IMG/VR virus record: IMGVR_UViG_3300012532_000215
Span: 1 to 41,280 of that record
Length of the DNA stretch: 41,280 nt
Origin: a virus
Direction: 5' to 3' (one strand)
Shown piece by piece: positions 5,693 through 38,833 of this stretch. The first letter of the stretch is position 1. Each line of letters begins with the position of its first letter. The translations under genes and the position numbers were made by a program. Under the pieces are notes generated by a model that saw nothing but the letters and a program-made list of their open reading frames with translations, had not been told where the DNA came from and did not search any database.

Positions 5693-5728
5693 GTCTCGAC
5701 TTCTGTGGGCGTCGAGCTGCCGTTGCTT
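5693..5728 (-). repeat. Solitary CRISPR-repeat-like hairpin
   Basis: This is a near copy of the array repeat in an intergenic gap, 2 bases after the stop of the 6122-5730 gene and about 12 bases before the ribosome site of the next gene. The stem is CTCGAC/GTCGAG, a compensatory variant of the array stem CTCGGC/GCCGAG, with a conserved 10-base loop. It has the same orientation as the array (RNA sense on minus). Confidence 0.85.
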
Positions 5729-9025: not shown

Positions 9026-10606
9026 TTAAGTCTCGATTTCCGTAGGCATCGAGCTGCCTTTTTCCGGTTCAATTACTTCAACTTGTGGCGTGGACGGCTC
9101 TACAGAAGCAGGAGGAGTCTGAACGATTTCCTCGATCGGCACCTTCCTGAAGGCCTCCCACGGGTGCACGTACGGCGTCGGTTCCGCGGCTGGTGGTGGA
9201 GGCGGTGGCCGCTCCCATGTTCGCTGTGGAGTCGCTGCAGGAGCAGGCGGAGGCTCCCATGCCCGCTGCTGAGAAGGCGCTGCCTCCCAAGGATGCGCTG
9301 CGATGGGCCTGCGCTGCGGTTCGGGCGGCAGTGCTCTCTGTTGCTGTTGCTGCCTATGTCTCTCTGCAGCGGCCTCGGCGCGCTCCATGAGTTCGACCTG
9401 CTCGCGCATGCTCTTGGTTCGATTCGTCCCGACTTTGTCGAAGACCTCTCCGACCTTGTCGAGAAAGCCATCGAGCATGCCCTTGTACTTGTCGATGTTG
9501 TAGAGCGTCGGTGCGCTCACTTCGCCATCAACCGCCATGAGTCTCAGCGGTCCGATGTCCTTGAACTTCGCGGGGAAGTCCGGGTCACCAGGAGGAGGTG
9601 GCGGCTCAGCATCAGGAGTTCCCCCACCGACGTGCTGGGCGATGTCGTGTGTGAACGCGTGCACACCGCGAACGATCGAGCTCATCTCCGTCAGCTGCTC
9701 GAGCGGACTCTTCGGCGGCGGGGGCGGTGGTGGTGGCTCTGGAGGCGGTGGCGGCGCGTAGTACTGAGGAGGATAGGAAGCGGCTAACCTCATCTGATCG
9801 AGCTGGTAGCGGTATTCGACGTTCTGCCGCATGAGCTCTTGCAGCATCGTCGCGAGCGTCGGATCGATGCCTGCAGGTATCTGCATGGGCATGGCAGGAG
9901 GTTGCGGTTGTGGTGCAGGCATCGGTTGCGGCTGATGGTACTGCGGCGCAGGCTGTGGCTGATGGTAGTAACCAGGCGCGCCCTGGTAGCCATAGCCAGG
10001 CATCGGTCCTCCCTGGTAGCCGTAGCCATTTGGCGGCCATCCTCCCTGGGGCGGTTGACCTCGGCGCATGTCGTCCTCCTGATTTTTTTGGGCAGCAAAT
10101 TTGATCGTGCCGGTGCCCCAAGACGGCAGCTGGTCGTCGAAGATCGTCCACTTGTACTCGGCCTTGTCGCCCTTCCAATGATTGTCACGGACATAGGCGA
10201 CGAGCGCGCCGTAATCTCTCAGAGCCGACACGGGGTGCTCGGGGATTCCTTCATGCTCCTCAGGCTTGATCTGCTTGATGCGCACGTAGGCATTCGGGTG
10301 AAAGCGCGTAATCTGCATGTAGCGCGTCGCATAGTCCGCGTTCCAGTTCACTCGCGCGACTCCGCCAGTCTTGAGCGACATCACCCTGTTGTGCTCAGCG
10401 ACTAGCCGCGAGCTCTCAGCATCGAGAGGCATCTCCCTCGCTTCCTCCTCGGAAATTTCGGCTTCTGTGAGAGGGTTACCGAACGAGTCAACCGGCGTAC
10501 CCTCGACAAAGAGTCGAGCTGGGTCGACGGCCTTGCCCTCCGTGCCGACCCTGTAGGGCCTTCTCGGCTTGCGCTTCGGCTTCTTTGCTTCGCCGTTCTC
10601 GGACAT
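9026..10606 (-). CDS. Pro/Gln-rich scaffold-like protein (526 aa)
   Basis: Not recognised. Residues 1-30 are Lys/Arg-rich. Residues 70-165 form a compact globular domain (with YMQITRFHPNAYVRIKQIKP). Residues 170-230 are Gly/Tyr/Gln/Pro-rich low complexity (GYGYQGG, QPQP repeats). Helical segments flank proline runs, and the C-terminal 120 residues are Pro/Glu-rich with poly-Gln. The last residues are encoded by a solitary CRISPR-like repeat. The mix of disordered and coiled regions suggests a scaffold or linker in the virion operon, which is inference. It starts 7 bases after the preceding stop. Confidence 0.65.
   Translation of the reverse strand: MSENGEAKKPKRKPRRPYRVGTEGKAVDPARLFVEGTPVDSFGNPLTEAEISEEEAREMPLDAESSRLVAEHNRVMSLKTGGVARVNWNADYATRYMQITRFHPNAYVRIKQIKPEEHEGIPEHPVSALRDYGALVAYVRDNHWKGDKAEYKWTIFDDQLPSWGTGTIKFAAQKNQEDDMRRGQPPQGGWPPNGYGYQGGPMPGYGYQGAPGYYHQPQPAPQYHQPQPMPAPQPQPPAMPMQIPAGIDPTLATMLQELMRQNVEYRYQLDQMRLAASYPPQYYAPPPPPEPPPPPPPPKSPLEQLTEMSSIVRGVHAFTHDIAQHVGGGTPDAEPPPPPGDPDFPAKFKDIGPLRLMAVDGEVSAPTLYNIDKYKGMLDGFLDKVGEVFDKVGTNRTKSMREQVELMERAEAAAERHRQQQQQRALPPEPQRRPIAAHPWEAAPSQQRAWEPPPAPAATPQRTWERPPPPPPAAEPTPYVHPWEAFRKVPIEEIVQTPPASVEPSTPQVEVIEPEKGSSMPTEIET
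9030..9065 (-). repeat. Solitary CRISPR-repeat-like hairpin at a gene end
   Basis: Stem CTCGAT/ATCGAG with the conserved loop and the following GCTGCCTTT arm, in array orientation. It forms the last codons of the Pro-rich gene (SSMPTEIET then TAA) and is followed by AAGGAG in the minus RNA. The stem differs from the array repeat at both partner positions, so pairing is kept. Confidence 0.85.
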
Positions 10607-11678: not shown

Positions 11679-12155
11679 CTAGTGCCTCATGCGCTGAGTG
11701 ATTTTGAACTCTTCGTCGTCGGGGAGCGAGGCCATACGATCTGTGTCCCGGTCTCGGCTTCCATAGGCGCCGAGCTGCCTTTGAAGGGGTTTGAAGCGAA
11801 GAAAGACCCTCTTGCGACTGCGCAACGCTTCCTCCTCCTCGGGCGTCGACAAGGTCGACACAGCGAGCTTCTGCGTCCGCCGCGTCCTATCGACGAGCTT
11901 CTGGTAGAGTGTCATCCGCACCTTGGGCGTCTGTCGACGAGGGTCCCGCGTCACGTCGTCAAATTGGTCGACAAGTCGCACGAAGCGCGCGCGGTCCCAC
12001 CCCGAGGCGTACCAGACCCCGAGCAGCCAGGATGCGGTTGGTAGAGCAATAATAAGGACGATGATCCATTCATTCACAAAGAAATTGCTGACACATGTTT
12101 TTCGAGCCGGCTCGGAGCCGAAGTAGTAGCCGATCCTACATTCAACTTTCGTCAA
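11679..12155 (-). CDS. Single-span membrane protein whose C-terminus contains a repeat element (158 aa)
   Basis: The longest frame starts at a TTG (12155); a GTG further in, just before NEWIIVLIIALPTASWLL, may be the true start. One membrane helix (WIIVLIIALPTASWLLGVWY) is followed by a basic, helical cytoplasmic-type region. Residues about 123-135 are encoded by a solitary CRISPR-like repeat. Behind the repeat, an internal ATG opens MASLPDDEEFKITQRMRH, so a shorter product is possible. The layout resembles an inner-membrane spanin, but no lipoprotein partner is adjacent. Function unknown. Confidence 0.5.
   Translation of the reverse strand: MTKVECRIGYYFGSEPARKTCVSNFFVNEWIIVLIIALPTASWLLGVWYASGWDRARFVRLVDQFDDVTRDPRRQTPKVRMTLYQKLVDRTRRTQKLAVSTLSTPEEEEALRSRKRVFLRFKPLQRQLGAYGSRDRDTDRMASLPDDEEFKITQRMRH
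11751..11786 (-). repeat. Solitary CRISPR-repeat-like hairpin inside a gene
   Basis: Stem CTCGGC/GCCGAG exactly as in the array, loop variant TTCCATAGGC, followed by GCTGCCTTT. It lies in frame near the 3' end of the membrane-protein gene and is read as QRQLGAYGSRD. Array orientation. Confidence 0.85.
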
Positions 12156-12324
12156 TAATTTTCAAATTTTGAGGTTGAGGCGGTTTGCTACGACCGTCTT
12201 TCTGAGGTGATTCGCCTCGCTCTGCCTCCTCCTCGTCTCTCATGCGAGCGAGAACATCATCGACGTCAGGCTCCGAATACCCCATCGCTAAGAGACGCAT
12301 CCTACACTCGGCGTAGATGTCCAT
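12142..12324 (-). CDS. Small acidic protein whose homologue is matched by an array spacer (60 aa)
   Basis: ATG at 12324 (MDIYAECRMRLLAMGYSEPD). The protein is helical, acidic in the middle (DDVLARMRDEEEAERGE) and polar at the end. Family not recognised; the N-terminal part could be a small UBA-like helical unit, but this is weak. Its 5' half (12275-12311) matches a spacer of the array at 35 of 37 positions. One difference is synonymous and the other is Ala to Val. It overlaps the next gene by 14 bases. Confidence 0.65.
   Translation of the reverse strand: MDIYAECRMRLLAMGYSEPDVDDVLARMRDEEEAERGESPQKDGRSKPPQPQNLKIIDES
12275..12311 (+). other. Near-self protospacer (matches array spacer 33991-34027)
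   Basis: The crRNA-sense spacer equals the + strand here except at spacer positions 3 and 13. Bases immediately 5' on the + strand are CTCC, where a type V PAM would lie. The difference at position 3 falls in the expected seed. Confidence 0.85.
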
Positions 12325-12333
12325 GGTCGATCT

Positions 12334-12369
12334 GTCTCGGCTTCCCTAGGGATCGGGTTCTAAACTACC
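12334..12369 (-). repeat. Decayed solitary repeat-like element
   Basis: Starts like the array repeat (GTCTCGGCTTCC) and keeps TAGG and a partial TCGGG arm, but the stem has mismatches in either strand and the GCTGCC arm is lost. It lies between the 60-aa gene and the plus-strand gene. Kept as a probable remnant only. Confidence 0.35.
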
Positions 12370-12373
12370 GAGC

Positions 12374-12670
12374 ATGACGAGCGACGACGATCTTGTCCAA
12401 CACGCAGAACGCGCAGTGGTCGAAGCCGCGGTTGAGTGGGCGAGAGAGCAGAAGATGTCGGCGCCAGCGGTACAGACTCCCGCAGCGTCGAAGCTCCGCA
12501 CGGCCTGCTACATGTTGTACCGCGCGCGCACTATCACGGGCAGGGTACGGCAGGATGAGATCGAGCGTGCGATGGCAGAAAGCGTCTCGACTTCCATAGG
12601 CGTCGAGCAGCCTTTGCACCTTAACGAACCTTGCGCGACTATTTCTGAAAAAAGGCGCGCCAATCGGTAA
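12374..12670 (+). CDS. Lone plus-strand gene, small helical protein (98 aa)
   Basis: Starts at ATG 12374 (MTSDDDLVQHAERAVVEAAV). The protein is acidic and amphipathic with helices such as TPAASKLRTACYMLYRARTI and VRQDEIERAMAESV, which looks like a real coding product. No ribosome site is obvious. The last 30 residues run through a solitary repeat read in antisense and overlap the end of the convergent cupin-like gene by 32 bases. It is the only convincing + strand gene seen. Function unknown; a regulator is possible. Confidence 0.5.
   Translation: MTSDDDLVQHAERAVVEAAVEWAREQKMSAPAVQTPAASKLRTACYMLYRARTITGRVRQDEIERAMAESVSTSIGVEQPLHLNEPCATISEKRRANR
12584..12619 (-). repeat. Solitary CRISPR-repeat-like hairpin downstream of the cupin-like gene
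   Basis: Stem CTCGAC/GTCGAG, loop TTCCATAGGC, then a GCAGCCTTT arm. Array orientation; 20 bases downstream (in minus sense) of the cupin-like gene's stop and inside the 3' part of the plus-strand gene. Confidence 0.85.
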
Positions 12671-17973: not shown

Positions 17974-18009
17974 CGATGAAGGCAGCTCGATGCCTAAAGA
18001 AATCGAGAC
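17974..18009 (+). repeat. Solitary CRISPR-repeat-like hairpin, inverted orientation
   Basis: The only copy with the crRNA sense on the + strand. Perfect stem CTCGAT/ATCGAG, loop GCCTAAAGAA, preceded by AAGGCAG. It lies in the 48-base gap between two minus-strand genes. A minus transcript through it would be complementary to the array repeat RNA and could act as an anti-repeat. Confidence 0.75.
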
Positions 18010-18596: not shown

Positions 18597-19067
18597 TTAC
18601 ATCCTTCCGAGCTTCCATAAACCGATGCCAACGGCGTCGATCATATTATTGTCAAAATCTTTTGCGCGCGGCCTCTTGGGCAGCAACGCAAGCTCTTCCT
18701 TTCTTAGAGCCGCGAGCACGCGCTTGTTATGAATATCCTTTGGTACGGTGCCCTTCCATGTGCGCGGCCATGTCAGCTGCACATCTGCATTCTGAGCTTC
18801 AAGCCGGCCCTTGATCTCGCCTACAAGACAAGACAAATCGAGCAAGTCATTTGTGTCAATCCGATGCTCGCGCGGGTACCACCGAGGGGCTTCTATGATC
18901 ACACTCCACGTTATACCGCACCAGGGTAGCTCTTTAACACTTCGTACGACACTAGTCTCCACAAGCTTTGACTTCTGAAACAGAGCCCAACCAAGGTTTG
19001 CTCTATCGGCACGCAAACCTGGATCTATAGCGAGAAGATGAGGTGCCGTCCTGATTTCTGTAGGCAT
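18597..19067 (-). CDS. RuvC-like Holliday junction resolvase (156 aa)
   Basis: RNase H-fold resolvase motifs are visible: LLAIDPGLRADRANLGWALF (first acidic residue), VIIEAPRWYP (Glu) and DNNMIDAVGIGLWKLGR (last Asp pair). Expected role: resolving branched DNA during replication or packaging. The ATG at 19067 overlaps the polymerase stop as TGATG and lies inside the solitary repeat hairpin at 19048-19083, whose AAAGGCAG may serve as ribosome site. The open frame extends upstream in the polymerase gene but this start fits the fold. Confidence 0.8.
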   Translation of the reverse strand: MPTEIRTAPHLLAIDPGLRADRANLGWALFQKSKLVETSVVRSVKELPWCGITWSVIIEAPRWYPREHRIDTNDLLDLSCLVGEIKGRLEAQNADVQLTWPRTWKGTVPKDIHNKRVLAALRKEELALLPKRPRAKDFDNNMIDAVGIGLWKLGRM

Positions 19068-19083
19068 CAGGCTGCCTTTGCTT
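19048..19083 (-). repeat. Solitary CRISPR-repeat-like hairpin over the pol/ruvC junction
   Basis: Stem CCTGAT/ATCAGG, changed at several paired positions relative to the array yet fully paired; conserved loop TTCTGTAGGC. The 5' stem arm in the minus RNA contains the polymerase stop and the resolvase start (TGATG). Array orientation. Confidence 0.88.
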
Positions 19084-27270: not shown

Positions 27271-27461
27271 CGAGTCATCCTTCGAAGCTTCGCGTCTCTC
27301 GCGATGATGAAATCCGCCACGTTCCACTCGCCTTTCTTCACGCGCTCCAGGGCCGACGCCATCGCCTCTGCGCTGCAGTAGCCAGAGCGCACGAGCGCGT
27401 CGCCGATCTTGATGGCATGCCGCATCGCTTCCGGCGTTACGCGCCCGTGCGTTTTTCTCAT
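27267..27461 (-). CDS. Small helical basic protein (64 aa)
   Basis: ATG 27461 overlaps the preceding stop (ATGA); its stop overlaps the exonuclease start. The sequence contains TPEAMRHAIKIGDALVRSGY and AEAMASALERVKKGEWNVAD, two helices that resemble a small DNA- or protein-binding bundle. No family recognised. Confidence 0.55.
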   Translation of the reverse strand: MRKTHGRVTPEAMRHAIKIGDALVRSGYCSAEAMASALERVKKGEWNVADFIIARDAKLRRMTR

Positions 27462-27859
27462 GCGCCCCGCAGCTCCTTCACAAGGTCGTCGATATTGTCT
27501 CTCAATTGATAAAGCACGTCGGCAGCGCGCTTGCACAAGGCCTCGAGCTCGCGGATGCGCTCGTACTGCTTTTGCTCAACATAGTGCTCATCGTGACCAG
27601 ATTTCGATCGTGCTTCATTAGTTGACGCGAGCTGCGCAGCCTTGCCCTTCTTGACTGCCCATTGCGCCATCTTCTCAGCACAAAGTCTGGCCTCCGCGAG
27701 CGCCTCAGGTGCAGTCACTCCGAGACGCTCGCGTAACGCGACCCAGTCTTCGACCAAGATCGACGCGACCGGATCGCGGCCGAGCAAGATGAACATGGGC
27801 TCATCCGGCTCGGCGCGCGAGTAACAGTCGTATTTCCCGGGATTATTTTTTGAGCCCAA
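27458..27859 (-). CDS. Conserved phage protein of NPGKYDC type (133 aa)
   Basis: A TTG start at 27859 with AGGGAGAGAA upstream gives MGSKNNPGKYDCYSRAEPDE. The N-terminal half (NPGKYDCY, EPMFILLGRDPVAS) is of a type I associate with conserved phage proteins of unknown function; the C-terminal half is a coiled coil (ERIRELEALCKRAADVLYQL). It is directly downstream of the solitary repeat 27874-27909; the ribosome site begins at the base after that repeat. Confidence 0.7.
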   Translation of the reverse strand: MGSKNNPGKYDCYSRAEPDEPMFILLGRDPVASILVEDWVALRERLGVTAPEALAEARLCAEKMAQWAVKKGKAAQLASTNEARSKSGHDEHYVEQKQYERIRELEALCKRAADVLYQLRDNIDDLVKELRGA

Positions 27860-27873
27860 CGTTTTCTCTCCCT

Positions 27874-27909
27874 GTCCCGACTTCCGTAGGTATCGAGCTG
27901 CCTTTACGA
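27874..27909 (-). repeat. Solitary CRISPR-repeat-like hairpin upstream of a TTG-started gene
   Basis: In the minus RNA the stem is CTCGAT/GTCGGG, held by two G.U pairs; on the + strand these would be mismatches. The 14 bases after it (AGGGAGAGAAAACG) are identical to the start of an array spacer next to the repeat at 33357. It overlaps the last codons of the nuclease gene. Confidence 0.88.
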
Positions 27910-29202
27910 ACCAAATCTCGACAGATATTCCCTGAGCATCGCATCGGCGAACGTAGCCGATGTCTGCGCAACGCCCTCCTGCATCTCGGCGTCCATCAAG
28001 TCGCCCGGCTCGAGCGTCGCGATGACCGCGCGCTCCGCGCTCGCGGCGAACGTGACCCAGTGGTCCTCGGGCGTCGCTGGCTTCGGCTGCGCCGTCGAGC
28101 CCACGGGCCTACCGCGCTTTCCCTTAGGAGCCTCAGCCTCCGGCTCGGCCACCTGAGTGGGCTCTGCATCCGCGATGACCTCAGCAACCGTCTCCACGGG
28201 CGGCGCGGCGGCTGCGGCCGCCTTCCTCGCCGCTGCACGCTCAGCGAGCTTGTTCCGCGACGGGGCTGTCGGCGCCGGAGCGGGTGCTGCTTGCATGACC
28301 TGCTGTGCTGCCTGCGCTACCGGCGGTGAGTTCACAGCACCGACCGCGGCGCCGTTGGCACCCTTGCGCGCCCTCAGCTTGAGCAAATAGTCTTCCTTGG
28401 CCGTACCTTGACTCATGATGGACCTCAGTCTGTCTTGGGGTGAAAGGTTACACTTACTTTGAAACGGACAGCCCCCGAAGGCCTCGCAGCCCCCGGCATC
28501 GTAAGGCACGTCTATCGCGGTCGTGCCCTCGTCGATGAGAAGCTTCATCTCGTGCGCGCTCTTCACGCTCTGAGTGACGCGGTCCTCTATCATCTCTGGC
28601 GTGAGCTCGGCGCGGACGGCCATCGCGTTCGGTGCGCCGCTCCTGAGACCATAGGTCCACTGAGCGGCAACCTTCGGCGCGCCCGTCTTCACGAGGGCCC
28701 AGGCCGCATAGAGCGTCACCTGCACGTCTTCCTGCATTACGTCGGGCTGGAGCGCCCAGTCGAAGGAGCCCGTGGTCTTGTGGTCGTAGACTGTTGGTAG
28801 TTCCGAACCGCTCGTCGTGTGGCTCGGCCAAGCAACCCCGCACTTGAAGGGCATCCACAAGTCGAGCTGCATGATGAACCGCACACCGCCAATGGTGATG
28901 CCGGCACCCATCTCGACGCACTCGGGGTCGACGAGGTGCGGAGGGGGCAGGTGCGGGAGCATCATCTGCGCCACGCGCGCCTCCTGTTTTCCCGATGGCG
29001 GCACGCGCTTCTTCAGCCAGAGCTCGAGGTATCGGTGCACCCGAATACCGAACTCGGCGAACTTGTTCGGCGCCCTCTCTGCGCCGTCGAGCCACTCCCA
29101 CGCCCACTTTCGGGGGCAGAGCTCGTAGGTGGAGACCTGACTCGGTGAGCATTCGTTGATCGCCTGAGCGCTCGCTAAGTTCTGGCTTATACCCTGTAGC
29201 AT
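27904..29202 (-). CDS. PD-(D/E)XK nuclease of RecB/Cas4-like family (432 aa)
   Basis: Typical N-terminus CSPSQVSTYELCPRKWAWEW, then GIRVHRYLELWLKK (His motif), a central VYDHKTTGSFDWA (D...K catalytic strand) and DVQVTLYAAWAL (Q-x3-Y motif). The late Cys cluster (CEAFGGCPFQSKCN) with the first Cys suggests a 4Fe-4S cluster as in AddB/Cas4. The C-terminal 110 residues are Ala/Pro-rich and probably disordered. ATG 29202 (MLQGISQNLASA) was chosen over an upstream frame extension to 29397. Likely recombination or end-processing; no Cas1/Cas2 is nearby. Confidence 0.8.
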   Translation of the reverse strand: MLQGISQNLASAQAINECSPSQVSTYELCPRKWAWEWLDGAERAPNKFAEFGIRVHRYLELWLKKRVPPSGKQEARVAQMMLPHLPPPHLVDPECVEMGAGITIGGVRFIMQLDLWMPFKCGVAWPSHTTSGSELPTVYDHKTTGSFDWALQPDVMQEDVQVTLYAAWALVKTGAPKVAAQWTYGLRSGAPNAMAVRAELTPEMIEDRVTQSVKSAHEMKLLIDEGTTAIDVPYDAGGCEAFGGCPFQSKCNLSPQDRLRSIMSQGTAKEDYLLKLRARKGANGAAVGAVNSPPVAQAAQQVMQAAPAPAPTAPSRNKLAERAAARKAAAAAAPPVETVAEVIADAEPTQVAEPEAEAPKGKRGRPVGSTAQPKPATPEDHWVTFAASAERAVIATLEPGDLMDAEMQEGVAQTSATFADAMLREYLSRFGS

Positions 29203-29219
29203 ATGATCCGTCAACTTTT

Positions 29220-29525
29220 TTATTCCGCGGCCTGCGCCGTTGCGCTCGCGCACGAGGTCGGTTGGTACCTCCAGTAGCGCAGGTGCGACAGCAATCCCTG
29301 CTCGTGACCGAAGTGCCGACCGCAGAGGACGCAGGCGCACACCCAGGGCAGCGAATCGCTGAAGAGGCTGCGGCGAAAGTTGGAAGCATACTGCCATCTG
29401 TCTTGCTCTAGCTTGAGGCCTCTTCGGTCGCGATCGCGCAGGACATGGCGAAAGACGCGGCGCTCTTGCGTGTGGCTCGGGATGCGCGCGGCCTCGGCGA
29501 AGATTTCGAGGATAGCTCGGTACAT
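29220..29525 (-). CDS. Small C2H2-type zinc-finger protein (101 aa)
   Basis: ATG 29525 follows the previous stop by one base. A zinc-finger-like element CACVLCGRHFGHEQGLLSHL is visible around residues 63-82. The N-terminus is helical and Arg-rich. No ribosome site is obvious, so translation may be coupled. Function unknown; a DNA-binding accessory protein is possible. Confidence 0.5.
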   Translation of the reverse strand: MYRAILEIFAEAARIPSHTQERRVFRHVLRDRDRRGLKLEQDRWQYASNFRRSLFSDSLPWVCACVLCGRHFGHEQGLLSHLRYWRYQPTSCASATAQAAE

Positions 29526-32461: not shown

Positions 32462-33221
32462 CCCTCTTGACCCGATGAAACGACTTTGTTACTGTTCCTG
32501 CAGGTCGAGCAGCGCATTTGCTCTACTCAAGAGCTCCGGGGCTTTCCAGTTTCCCGGGGCTCTTGGCCTTTCTGGGGTGAGGATCCGTTATGCCCGAGTA
32601 CGGGGCTACATGTCAAGGCATCGGAGATCGACGGGGGTGTTGGGGTCTGTCAGCCCCAAATGTCCCAATGTCCCAGCTCATCGATGGCATTTCTTGAGCC
32701 TACATCGAGAGCCCAGACCGAGTGTCCCAGTGTCCCACCGTGTCTCAGTTGGCAAGTGGGACACACCTAACCACCCGTAACTACCCAACAAAAACACTGA
32801 ACATTCGACCCCACTGGAAAAGCTACTGAGACGCACCTAAGTGCTCGACAGCAATGAAGAAAGGATCGAATGTCCCAGTTGACCCCATCGCCGAACCATA
32901 TACAGATGTAAAACACAAGTGTGTTTTTCTCATATATATGGTTTGTTGATGGGACATTGAGACACTGGGACAAATGGTAGTTTCTTCCGAGAGAAATGGT
33001 ACAAAAAGTGTCCCACTACAGGCACACGGTAATGGGACACTGGGACAAAATAACTATAAAAACTTTATTTAATAAATGATTTCCAGTGTCAATTTAACTG
33101 AGAAAATGATCTTGAATTAAAAATGCTGTTTTGAGGTACGCAAAGAATGAATTTCCGATTTTTTTGGCTGTGCAAAAAGTTCTACGCGAATTAAAATGGT
33201 GAGCTACGAGGTCCGCGCCGT
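32462..33221. promoter_or_regulatory. Intergenic region between CRISPR array and replication operon; candidate origin/operator
   Basis: About 760 bases without a convincing gene. It holds 11 copies of TGTCCCA or its complement between 32661 and 33047. There is an AT-rich block at about 33045-33130, and an inverted repeat at 32529-32564 (AAGAGC-CCGGG against CCCGG-GCTCTT). Such clustered short repeats beside an AT-rich stretch and upstream of a primase-helicase are typical of replication origins or repressor sites. No promoter boxes are assigned. Confidence 0.6.
32661..33047. repeat. Iteron-like TGTCCCA boxes (11 copies, both orientations)
   Basis: TGTCCCA at 32661, 32669, 32723, 32731, 32871 and 33009; TGGGACA at 32757, 32950, 32966, 33033 and 33041; a one-base variant at 32741. 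Several form 8-base tandem pairs; others are divergent, so a dimeric initiator or repressor is plausible. Confidence 0.8.
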
Positions 33222-35190
33222 GTTGCCGATTTTTGTAGGCATCGGACAGCCTTTGTATGTGCATGTGCGGACACATGGCGAAGTCTCGGTTTCTGTAGGC
33301 GCCGAGCTGCCTTTGGGCTACTGCTGCATGGGACGCAGCCTGCGTTTTCTCTCCCTGTCTCGGCTTCTGTAGGCGCCGAGCTGCCTTTGGGCCATCGAGC
33401 GCTTGGAACTCGACGGGGTAGCTATTCCGGTCTCTGCTTCTGTAGGCGCCGAGCTTCCTTTGGGTCGTGAGAGGCGCACCGCGGTCCAGCAGATGGGTGA
33501 GGGTCTCGGCTTCTGTAGGCGCCGAGCTGCCTTTGGGCCGGCTACTTACCCTGCAATTTTGGGCACTGTCAACGGCGCGTCGAACACACTGTCGACGCCT
33601 AGTCTCGGTTTCTGTAGGCGCCGAGCTGCCTTTGGGCCTGCACAATGAGACCGGCGAGATCATCTCCTTCGATGTCTCGGCTTCTGTAGGCGCCGAGCTG
33701 CCTTTGGGCTTGCTCACATCGCGCCACTCGCAGCCCAGCTCCATGTCTCGGCTTCTGTAGGCGCCGAGCTGCCTTTGGGCGACGCCGCGCGTGCAAGTTC
33801 ACTAAACCCTTGTCTCGACTTCTGTAGGCGCCGAGCTGCCTTTGGGCCTTGTCAGGTGGGGAGCGCAATCGCCTGCACCTCGCGTCTCGACTTCTGTAGG
33901 CGCCGAGCTGCCTTTGGGCGCGCGGCTGTTGGTGGTCCTTGCACAGTCGATCGTGTCTCGACTTCTGTAGGCGCCGAGCTGCCTTTGGGCCCGAGTGTAG
34001 GATGCGTCTCTTAGTGATGGGGTACTCGTCTCGGCTTCTGTAGGCGCCGAGCTGCCTTTGGGCCCTCCTCGAAGCAGCCCGCGAGCATGGCTTCGACGTC
34101 TCGGCTTCTGTAGGCGCCGAGCTGCCTTTGGGCGATCCGCAGCAGCTCTGCCCCGCGTTCGGTCTTGGGCTTCTTGTAGGCGCCGAGCTGCCTTTGGGCA
34201 ATCAAGACCCGCCCGGACAGCCCTAGATCGCGCGCATGTCTCGGTTTCTGTAGGCGCCGAGCTGCCTTTGGGCCTGTCAGGGGCGCGGCCGTACATCTCC
34301 GTCTCGGCTTCTGTAGGCGCCGAGCTGCCTTTGGGCGCCTGCACCGGAGCGCGGCTTCCTCTACGCGCTGTCTCGGCTTCTGTAGGCGCCGAGCTGCCTT
34401 TGGGCTCTTTTTAGACACATTACACCCTGTAGCCATGTTAACCCGTCTCGGCTTCTGTAGGCGCCGAGCTGCCTTTGGGCCGCGGGTGTGACGCGCGCCG
34501 AGCTGCACGCCCCGCGGAGCGTCTCGGCTTCTGTAGGCGCCGAGCTGCCTTTGGGCGCGCCATCGCGCGATTGAGGAGCTACTCCGCGCCACGTCTCGGC
34601 TTCTGTAGGCGCCGAGCTGCCTTTGGGCGCTGAAGAGAATGGTGTGGGGCGGCCCGACTCCCATGTCTCGGCTTCTGTAGGCGCCGAGCTGCCTTTGGCC
34701 TAAGCTTGATGATGCCGTCGTCTCGGCCTCTGTAGGCGCCGAGCTGCCTTTGGGCGTCGGGTTTGGCCTTGCCACGCTTGTCCAGTGCCTGGTGTCTCGG
34801 CTTCTGTAGGCGCCGAGCTGCCTTTGGGCACGCAAGCGGCCGGCTCGTGGCTGTGCATTCGCTGTGTCTCGGCTTCTGTAGGCGCCGAGCTGCCTTTGGG
34901 CCCTGACGCTTCGCGGTCTCGTCGGGATCCGGGACTGGGTCTCGGCTTCTGTAGGCGCCGAGCTGCCTTTGGGCACCGAAGTGCAGCTTCTTCGACACGC
35001 TCGAGCACTGGTCTCGGCTTCTGTAGGCGCCGAGCTGCCTTTGGGTGCGCGCACGGCGACGCCGAGGAGCAAGCGCTCGCCCGTCTCGGCTTCTGTAGGC
35101 GCCGAGCTGCCTTTGGGGCCGACAAGGCCAACGACGATGGCGGCGCCGAACCTCGTCTCGGCTTCTGTAGGCGCCGAGCTGCCTTTGGGT
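33222..35190 (-). CRISPR. CRISPR array, 27 repeats of 36 bp plus one decayed terminal repeat
   Basis: Intact repeats start at 33283, 33357, 33430, 33503, 33602, 33674, 33745, 33812, 33884, 33955, 34028, 34098, 34162 (variant), 34238, 34301, 34370, 34445, 34521, 34593, 34665, 34720, 34794, 34866, 34939, 35011, 35083 and 35155; a diverged one lies at 33222-33257. Spacers are mostly 33-40 bp, with outliers of 63 (33539), 19 (34701), 27 (34274) and 28 (34134). In minus (crRNA) sense each repeat ends in a hairpin CTCGGC/GCCGAG followed by AC, the type V layout with the hairpin next to the spacer. The effector-proximal end is the more uniform one, and decay is at the far end, so the leader is at the effector side. 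G.U-only variants (33812, 33884, 33955) support minus-strand transcription. No cas1 or cas2 is in the window. Confidence 0.97.
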
Positions 35191-35245: not shown

Positions 35246-36685
35246 TCACTCAGCCGCCGTGTCGATGAGCTGATTTGCCGCGTTATTTGCATCCTGATCT
35301 CTCTGAGCATCACACTGCTCGCAGTAGAGCACTACATCGCGCACTCGGTCGCCGGTAAGCTCACATCCGCATACACTGCACACCATTGTGCGTCGTTTGA
35401 TCGTGGCGAGTGTAGCGCGCTCGCCGAATACGCTCTGGACCTCGGCTCGCAGAGACCCCGGTGCCACGAGGAATCGGACGTGGCGCGCCTCGGGAATCTC
35501 GGTCGGTTGGTCTCTCGAGATGAGCGTCGGCAGGTCGTAGTCCTCCATGACAACGGAGCCGTATTTGGCCGCGAGCGAGCGCACCCACAAGCGGTAGATC
35601 TCTCGGCGCTGGCGAAGGACCTTGGCGTACTCGTCGCGCTCCCACTGATAGAGATGCCGATCGCGCCTGGCCCAGTGCTCCGCAGAGATCGGCTCGCCTT
35701 CGATAGGCACGCGACCGAGCTCTCGGTGCGTCGCGCTGGGGTCCCTCAAGGCTTCGCGTCTCGCACGCGTGCGCCCGCGGGCATCGCCGAGGTAGGCCAC
35801 CGCTGCATCGTCGGCGAGTCCTCGGAGCGACTCGGAGTGCCGGAGTTTGTCAATGAGACGTCTCGGCAGGATGAGCTCGTCCGTCGAGCCCTCGTCGGTC
35901 GCCACGTAGGCGATGCGCACTCCGCGGTCTCCCAGCGACCTCCAGCCGAAGTTGATGGCCGCTCGGCCGCTGCCGTACTGGCGCTCCGGGCGCTCGTGGC
36001 GCATCGTGACGTGCACCGAGTAGACATAGCGGTCGCCGACCCGCTCGACGCAGATGAGGGCTCGGACGACCTGGACGCCTGGCGGCAGTGGGCGGTGGGC
36101 GATGACGGGCAGCGTGACGTGGATGCCGAGACCGAGGTAGAGCCGCGCCGTGACGCGGCCCTCAGGTGCCGATAGGCGCAGCGAGCCCCTGCCGGAGAGT
36201 ACATCGTCGGTCGTCGCACCCGAGCAGGCCTGGATATTTGCCCCGAGGCGACCTGTCCCGTCAAATCGACGGAATCGTGCGCGGAATTTGGTCGGATCGA
36301 GGCCTATTTCGCGCACCTGGGCGTCCTGATTTCCATCGGCATCAGGCGGCCTCTGTATTTTGATTTGCCTTACTTGGGCGAACCATCGCGCGCGCCCTGA
36401 GACCTTGCGCGGCGCGCGGTAGGGCGACTTTGCGGCGCGGCGTACATCGGCCTCGATGGCCTGATAGGTGCCCCAGCCGAGGCCACATCGCGATCGCAGC
36501 CAGCAACTCATCTCGGCATGGACGAGCTTGGCCGCCGAGCGCTCGACGCCGCTCTGCTCGGCGATGATGCGCCAGTTCAGGAGCTCGACCAGGGCATTGC
36601 GGTAGCGGCATGCGAGGCGGAGCTGCGTGAGGAGGAGATCGAACCCCTCGGTTGGTTTGAGAGCGCCATAGCGGTAGACGATCAT
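35246..36685 (-). CDS. Miniature type V (Cas12/TnpB-like) effector, probably nuclease-dead (479 aa)
   Basis: C-terminal RuvC and zinc-ribbon architecture: RuvC-I region AAINFGWRS with Asn245 where the catalytic Asp is expected, RuvC-II VVMEDYDL (Glu381), zinc ribbon C436-x2-C439 ... C455-x2-C458, and RuvC-III DQDANNAANQ (Asp465). The N-terminal 240 residues (starting MIVYRYGALKPTEGFDLLLT) would form the recognition and wedge parts. Size is close to TnpB and the smallest Cas12 proteins. ATG 36685 overlaps the previous stop (ATGA) and has AAGGAAAC upstream. The array begins 55 bases after the stop on the same strand. Predicted: crRNA-guided DNA binding and silencing without cutting. Residues 110-121 are encoded by a repeat-like hairpin. 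Confidence 0.88.
   Translation of the reverse strand: MIVYRYGALKPTEGFDLLLTQLRLACRYRNALVELLNWRIIAEQSGVERSAAKLVHAEMSCWLRSRCGLGWGTYQAIEADVRRAAKSPYRAPRKVSGRARWFAQVRQIKIQRPPDADGNQDAQVREIGLDPTKFRARFRRFDGTGRLGANIQACSGATTDDVLSGRGSLRLSAPEGRVTARLYLGLGIHVTLPVIAHRPLPPGVQVVRALICVERVGDRYVYSVHVTMRHERPERQYGSGRAAINFGWRSLGDRGVRIAYVATDEGSTDELILPRRLIDKLRHSESLRGLADDAAVAYLGDARGRTRARREALRDPSATHRELGRVPIEGEPISAEHWARRDRHLYQWERDEYAKVLRQRREIYRLWVRSLAAKYGSVVMEDYDLPTLISRDQPTEIPEARHVRFLVAPGSLRAEVQSVFGERATLATIKRRTMVCSVCGCELTGDRVRDVVLYCEQCDAQRDQDANNAANQLIDTAAE
36323..36358 (-). repeat. CRISPR-repeat-like hairpin inside the effector gene
   Basis: Perfect stem CCTGAT/ATCAGG, loop TTCCATCGGC, followed by GGCCTCTG. The stem is identical to the solo copy at 19048-19083. 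In frame it encodes QRPPDADGNQD. Array orientation, so the effector mRNA carries a potential Cas-binding hairpin. Confidence 0.8.
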
Positions 36686-38785: not shown

Positions 38786-38797
38786 AGTTTCGACCTG

Positions 38798-38833
38798 TCC
38801 CGATTTCTGTAGGCATCGAGTAGCCTTTTCATG
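38798..38833 (-). repeat. Solitary CRISPR-repeat-like hairpin between two genes
   Basis: In the minus RNA the stem is CTCGAT/ATCGGG with one G.U pair (a mismatch on the other strand); loop TTCTGTAGGC identical to the array. It overlaps the stop of the 82-aa gene and sits directly before the start region of the next gene. Confidence 0.88.

What the first reader, a model, noticed from the sequence alone, without database searches (positions are those of the whole stretch)
27860..27909. Solo repeat and array repeat share the same 14 bases of downstream sequence
After the solo repeat at 27874 the minus RNA reads AGGGAGAGAAAACG; the spacer after the array repeat at 33357 begins with the identical 14 bases, then diverges. 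By chance this is very unlikely. It implies exchange between solo repeats and the array, or that the solo element's flank acts as a guide (pseudo-spacer). The shared bases include the ribosome site of the gene at 27859.
Basis: seen in the sequence. Interest (0 to 1): 0.83.

Follow-up and report, generated by a model that had tools for sequence, protein, structure and literature searches.

The report
Solitary CRISPR repeat shares spacer start
A bacterial virus that carries its own DNA-binding (apparently non-cutting) CRISPR system also has nine single CRISPR repeats scattered through its genome, mostly between genes, and one of them is followed by the same 14 bases that begin a spacer in the virus's CRISPR array, so the two could make guide RNAs that start alike.

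Summary
AGGGAGAGAAAACG occurs exactly twice in the 41,280-base phage record: directly behind the solo repeat 27874-27909(-) and as the first 14 bases of spacer 26 (33319-33356) behind array repeat 33357-33392(-). In that register chance is about 2e-6. The gene beside the array (35246-36685) is a Cas12m, so the phage carries a type V-M CRISPR system of its own. Nine solo repeats, all detected by a model trained only on array repeats, keep the crRNA pseudoknot of Cas12m: 54/54 pairs in the main helix, four of six with compensatory changes. No pol relative shows Cas12m or solos; the nearest one lacks solos at two homologous junctions. Other Cas12m phages carry degenerate mini-arrays, and Rctr197k carries two solos far from its array. 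The 14-base sharing is a one-off (no other solo flank shares more than 3 bases), so it is best read as a single transfer between this junction, or kin, and the array, not a general rule. No solo guide has another seed match of 10 bases or more in the record. I favour cis-acting Cas12m-binding RNA elements in phage mRNAs; trans-acting guides remain possible. Function is untested.

The parts
27874..27909 (-). solo repeat of the finding; 30-nt core 27874-27903 = AGGC|AG|CTCGAT|ACCT|ACGGAA|GTCGGG|AC
   Evidence: found at E 1.2e-7 by a covariance model built only from array repeats
27860..27873 (-). 14-base flank AGGGAGAGAAAACG, identical to the start of spacer 26; would be guide positions 1-14
27458..27859 (-). 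ORF of 133 aa, TTG start directly behind the 14-mer; no family match
27904..29397 (-). PD-(D/E)XK exonuclease gene whose stop codon (27904-27906) lies in the 5' end of the solo repeat
33319..33356 (-). array spacer 26 (38 nt); its first 14 bases (33343-33356) equal the solo flank; its last 24 can form a 7-bp hairpin
33223..35190 (-). CRISPR array, 28 repeats including a degenerate last one (33223-33258) and one damaged (34164-34199), 27 spacers, repeat GCCCAAAGGCAGCTCGGCGCCTACAGAAGCCGAGAC
35246..36685 (-). Cas12m effector, 479 aa, RuvC residues N245-E381-D465 by alignment, zinc ribbon
   Evidence: PADLOC Cas12u1 1e-50; PDB Cas12m 23vw 1.3e-29; 41% identical to G001 Cas12m
5693..5728 (-). solo repeat between two genes, 28 nt before ATG 5664
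9030..9065 (-). solo repeat at the 3' end of gene 10606-9026
11751..11786 (-). solo repeat near the 3' end of ORF 12155-11679
12584..12619 (-). solo repeat overlapping the 3' part of a plus-strand ORF 12374-12670
17974..18009 (+). solo repeat in the gap between genes 18596-18015(-) and 17966-17679(-), opposite to them; absent from relative L034, where the genes nearly abut
19048..19083 (-). solo repeat holding the stop codon of DNA polymerase and an ATG in frame with the next gene; absent from relative L034
36323..36358 (-). solo repeat within the cas12m reading frame, reaching into a 23-aa insertion absent from G001 and G002 Cas12m
38797..38832 (-). solo repeat between two genes, 11 nt before GTG 38785
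12334..12369 (-). probable decayed solo repeat (3' half only), 9 nt before ATG 12324; not found by the covariance models
12275..12311 (+). protospacer-like match of spacer 17 (33991-34027), 35/37, 5' flank GGCTCC

Best explanation
The site is a stand-alone crRNA unit of the phage's own type V-M (Cas12m) system, one of nine, sitting in the transcript between the exonuclease gene and a small downstream ORF. Shown: it is a structure-preserving relative of the array repeat, and its flank equals the first 14 of the roughly 17 guide bases that Cas12m uses. Inferred: (1) the 14-base identity is the trace of one DNA transfer between this junction, in this phage or a close relative, and the array (repeat-to-repeat recombination, or acquisition of a kin protospacer); (2) Cas12m binds, and may process, the solo hairpin in the phage mRNA, which here would cover the ribosome site directly behind it, so the solos act in cis as Cas12m-responsive control or processing elements at gene junctions; (3) any crRNA released from this one would have the same seed as spacer 26 and could address the same DNA. 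The identity is real, the solo as a Cas12m-binding element is likely, and the regulatory step is a hypothesis.
For: A model built from array repeats of three phages only finds all nine solos at E 3e-6 or better and nothing else below 0.06. In the solos the pseudoknot helix is paired in 54/54 cells with compensatory changes in 4 of 6 pairs (0/500 shuffles reach the covariation score), and loop AA and 3' GAC are invariant. The layout matches the Cas12m2 crRNA, in which A(-2) and C(-1) are read by the WED domain and the heteroduplex is 17 bp (PMC10442227). Cas12m is encoded beside the array. Pol relatives without detectable Cas12m lack solos. Solos are insertions at two junctions by comparison with L034. 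Eight of nine lie on the same strand as the array and most genes. Other Cas12m phages place repeats where cis control is plausible: G001 has three directly before the cas12m start codon. Prefix identity is not chance.
Against: No RNA or binding data. Distances from solo to start codon vary (9-38 nt); several of the nine are not directly in front of a gene on their strand, and one lies inside cas12m, so no single cis rule fits all. The 27909 solo has diverged about 20% from the array repeat in its core while the 14 bases are identical, which fits poorly with a simple old copy of repeat plus flank. Folded alone, the mRNA stretch is not unusually stable (z 1.65; pseudoknots not modelled). Covariation could partly predate the solos, if they came from different array variants.
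Confidence: 0.42

Rival explanations
1. Trans-acting guide: the solo makes a crRNA that leads Cas12m to the same external target (host or competing phage) as spacer 26, and the shared 14 bases are kept by selection for that target.
For: Scaffold intact; 14 of about 17 guide bases shared (PMC10442227). In relative G001 the flank behind the repeat before cas12m matches a recurring motif of that genome, 15/15 at 41337 and 13-14/15 at three further sites.
Against: No other seed match of 10 bases or more in this record for any of the solo flanks. At two sites the flank is native junction sequence, not a spacer. Only one solo shares bases with the array. G001 sites have no consistent 5' flank that looks like a PAM.
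Confidence: 0.24
2. Passive footprint: solos are pieces of array DNA moved into gene junctions by recombination, with no present function; the 14-mer is one such piece.
For: Insertions at junctions with short shared words at their borders (GGCAGC and AGGAC at the pol gene). A decayed solo exists (12334-12369). Variable placement, one inverted, one inside cas12m.
Against: No helix cell broken in 54 despite much sequence change; contact bases invariant.
Confidence: 0.18
3. Spacer 26 was acquired by the ordinary route from a related phage that has the same leader in front of a different gene; the solo plays no part in the identity. (This concerns the origin of the identity only and is compatible with any function of the solo.)
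For: Arrays of these phages do hold spacers against kin: spacer 17 matches this phage 35/37 (5' flank TCC) and a G002 spacer matches cas12m 34/36 (5' flank TTC). Gene swaps at gene boundaries are common in phages (general knowledge).
Against: The shared stretch begins exactly at the solo's end, which this route does not predict; the flank in this phage (GAC) does not resemble the two observed TCC/TTC flanks; no such relative was found.
Confidence: 0.3
4. RNA anti-CRISPR (Racr): the solos titrate Cas12m of the host or of a competing phage.
For: Solitary repeat units in phages can do this, including against a type V system (PMC10651486).
Against: This phage has a matching Cas12m of its own, which would be inhibited; nine copies within gene junctions; no bacterial genome with this repeat found.
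Confidence: 0.1
5. Chance coincidence.
For: Unanchored 14-base matches of spacers in this record occur by chance.
Against: In the register of the repeat end the expectation is 2e-6.
Confidence: 0.01

Closest known systems
Type V-M CRISPR-Cas (Cas12m, formerly V-U1); Cas12m2 structure PMC10442227, ortholog set PMC11013384
   Same: Effector similarity, non-canonical RuvC triad, self-contained crRNA scaffold with a pseudoknot and 3' AC, no adaptation genes seen.
   Different: Phage-borne, short effector (479 aa), NED-type triad, accompanied by nine solo repeats, mostly at gene junctions; activity untested.
Solitary repeat units / RNA anti-CRISPRs (Racr), PMC10651486
   Same: Single CRISPR-like repeats without an adjoining array in intergenic stretches of a phage.
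   Different: Here the same phage encodes the matching effector and array; nine copies; one flank matches a spacer of the array.
Viral mini-arrays used in competition between related viruses (review PMC11656645)
   Same: Spacers matching kin phages (spacer 17; the G002 spacer against cas12m).
   Different: Full array of 27 spacers plus an own effector, rather than borrowing the host's.
Degenerate crRNA-like regulators of cas genes (CreR type; from memory, only mentioned in papers found)
   Same: Degenerate repeats directly before cas12m in G001.
   Different: In the window there is none before cas12m, and no partial target of a solo guide in the record.

Membership tests
Type V-M (Cas12m) CRISPR system | Effector homologous to Cas12m with RuvC and zinc ribbon | tested here: met
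Type V-M (Cas12m) CRISPR system | Non-canonical RuvC triad reported for Cas12m clades (HDD, NED, DND and others) | tested here: met
   N245-E381-D465 by alignment; list of triads in PMC10442227
Type V-M (Cas12m) CRISPR system | Repeat folds as stem plus 6-bp pseudoknot followed by AC | tested here: met
Type V-M (Cas12m) CRISPR system | No Cas1/Cas2 adaptation genes in the locus | tested here: met
   no such family among the ORFs scanned; not every small ORF was scanned
Type V-M (Cas12m) CRISPR system | PAM-dependent DNA binding without cleavage | not testable with these tools
   needs biochemistry; two near-self protospacers have TCC and TTC in front
Solitary repeat unit (SRU) | Single repeat-like element in a viral genome, apart from an array | tested here: met
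   nine copies
RNA anti-CRISPR (Racr) | Mimics a repeat of the host's CRISPR system | tested here: inconclusive
   no bacterial genome with the repeat in genome contigs; the phage's own system matches; host unknown
RNA anti-CRISPR (Racr) | Inhibits CRISPR interference | not testable with these tools
   needs an assay
CreR-type crRNA-like regulator | Guide with partial match to a cas promoter or other regulated site in the same genome | tested here: not met
   no second seed match of 10 bases or more for any solo flank in this record, apart from spacer 26

The most novel reading that the evidence does not exclude
The phage uses its Cas12m on two levels: against DNA through the array, and as an RNA-binding or processing regulator of its own messages through dispersed solo repeats, so that its mRNAs double as guide precursors, and guides pass between messages and array.
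Probability: 0.25. Interest if true: 0.85.

Novelty: new variant of a known kind. Interest (0 to 1): 0.6.

Why it matters
Solitary CRISPR repeats in phages are so far explained as decoys against the host. Here a phage with its own Cas12m carries nine structurally maintained solo repeats, mostly at its own gene junctions, which suggests that a viral CRISPR effector may control or process the virus's own transcripts. The shared 14 bases give a concrete case for asking how arrays without adaptation genes gain spacers.

Tried and rejected
Searches for relatives by repeat pattern in bacterial genomes (none) and viral contigs (only G001 and G002). Exonuclease protein in viral contigs: no relative, so the junction at 27859 could not be compared directly. 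A 13/14 match in the L034 methylase gene was rejected as chance: 0.28 such matches were expected in the DNA searched. Targets of solo guides in the record: none. Array against phage and plasmid records: no match. Rfam: no known RNA family. The AlphaFold model of Cas12m from three sequences was poor (pLDDT 42) and was not used. A PAM-directed insertion model for the solos was considered; the one junction with an empty site whose flank can be read (pol, CGA in front in L034) does not support it. 'Array born from a solo' was considered; the repeat before spacer 26 is the array consensus, not solo-like, so it was dropped.

Full report
1. The observation. The window is a complete IMG/VR virus record of 41,280 bases. 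On the minus strand a repeat-like element (27909-27874) is followed by AGGGAGAGAAAACG and then TTGGGC...; the array repeat at 33392-33357 is followed by the same 14 bases and then CAGGCTG.... The 14-mer occurs nowhere else in the record. Any-register 14-base matches between a spacer and the record are not rare, but the shared register (both directly behind the repeat end) gives an expectation near 2e-6; the next best solo-spacer pair shares 3 bases.

2. What carries it. The ORF next to the array (35246-36685, start at MIVYRYGALKP) is Cas12m: PADLOC Cas12u1 1e-50, PDB Cas12m 23vw 1.3e-29, 41% identical to a Cas12m beside a similar array in a 135-kb phage contig, G001. Its RuvC residues align as N-E-D, one of the non-canonical triads listed for Cas12m (PMC10442227). 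No Cas1/Cas2 family was seen among the ORFs scanned. The structure prediction was too poor to use.

3. The solo repeats. Besides the array there are nine solo repeats (5693, 9030, 11751, 12584, 17974 on plus, 19048, 27874, 36323, 38797) and a decayed one (12334). A covariance model trained only on array repeats of three phages finds all nine at E 3e-6 or better, with nothing else below 0.06. They fit the layout stem 5' (4) - AG - helix 5' (6) - stem 3' (4) - loop (6) - helix 3' (6) - AC, which is the Cas12m2 crRNA pseudoknot with a slightly longer loop (PMC10442227). In the nine solos the 6-bp helix is paired in 54 of 54 cells, with compensatory double changes in four of six pairs; the first stem also covaries between phages (AGGC/GCCT against AGGG/CCCT). 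The conserved 3' AC, read by the protein in Cas12m2, never varies. This argues for retained recognition by Cas12m.

4. Where they sit. Eight of nine are on the strand of the array and of most genes, usually at a gene end or junction; start codons follow at 9-38 nt in several cases. DNA-polymerase relatives with full-length records are mostly 43-47 kb phages, so the record is probably most of the genome. None of these relatives shows Cas12m or solos. The closest, L034 (81% in DNA polymerase), lacks the solos at both junctions that can be compared: the two genes flanking 17974 nearly abut there, and at the polymerase end it has a further ORF instead. The solo at 36323 reaches into a 23-aa insertion of Cas12m absent from both close homologues. 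The solos are therefore insertions, at least at these sites, some with short shared words at their borders.

5. Other Cas12m phages. G001 has three degenerate repeats directly before the cas12m start; G002 has a degenerate run at its other contig end. Rctr197k (GenBank KX853510), with a distant Cas12m and its own array, has two solos in a tRNA cluster 64 kb from the array. Dispersed or stand-alone repeats thus recur beside phage Cas12m.

6. Meaning of the 14 bases. No other solo flank, in the window, Rctr197k, G001 or G002, shares more than 3 bases with an array spacer of its own phage. So the sharing is one event, not a rule. Possible routes are repeat-to-repeat recombination and acquisition from a related phage. 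Kin-directed spacers exist: spacer 17 matches this phage 35/37, and a G002 spacer matches the cas12m gene 34/36. I cannot decide between the two routes; the 20% divergence of the solo core against identity of the flank disfavours a simple old copy, and the exact start at the repeat end disfavours independent acquisition.

7. Mechanism. Cas12m processes pre-crRNA and binds DNA over about 17 bp without cutting (PMC10442227, PMC11013384). If it binds the solo in the mRNA, it would lie against AGGGAG, the presumed ribosome site of the next ORF. This cis model (0.42) fits strand bias and structural constraint. The trans-guide model (0.24) is weakened by the absence of further targets in this record, though G001 offers a suggestive case: the flank behind its third repeat matches a recurring genomic motif, 15/15 at 41337 and 13-14/15 at three other sites. 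Passive footprints (0.18) fit the insertion pattern but not the maintained helices. The confidences given to the rivals overlap, because the origin of the identity and the function of the solo are separate questions. All functional steps are inference.

Noticed in passing
L021 (G002) 1850-1885, spacer behind repeat 204-233: A spacer of the G002 phage array matches the cas12m gene, 34/36 in G002 itself and 25/26 in G001: phage Cas12m arrays may target each other's effector.
   Followed up: partly
window 33991-34027 and 12275-12311: Spacer 17 matches this phage's own small gene with 2 mismatches, next to the decayed solo repeat at 12334-12369.
   Followed up: partly
G001 28974, 41337, 47184, 50949, 109274; G002 43126: Recurring motif GCAACTTTT(C/T)GGG, in several copies with CCTACCCGG upstream; in G001 one copy directly follows the repeat before cas12m.
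   Followed up: partly
L081 (KX853510 175344-175695): Two solitary Cas12m-type repeats within a phage tRNA cluster, one followed by what looks like the 3' part of a tRNA.
   Followed up: partly
L003 (G001) array, repeats at contig 26372 and 25860: Two spacers 93% identical and in the same register within one array, suggesting repeated capture from variants of one site.
   Followed up: no
window 32650-33100: AT-rich stretch with repeated TGTCCCA words between the primase gene and the array, unlike the rest of the record.
   Followed up: no
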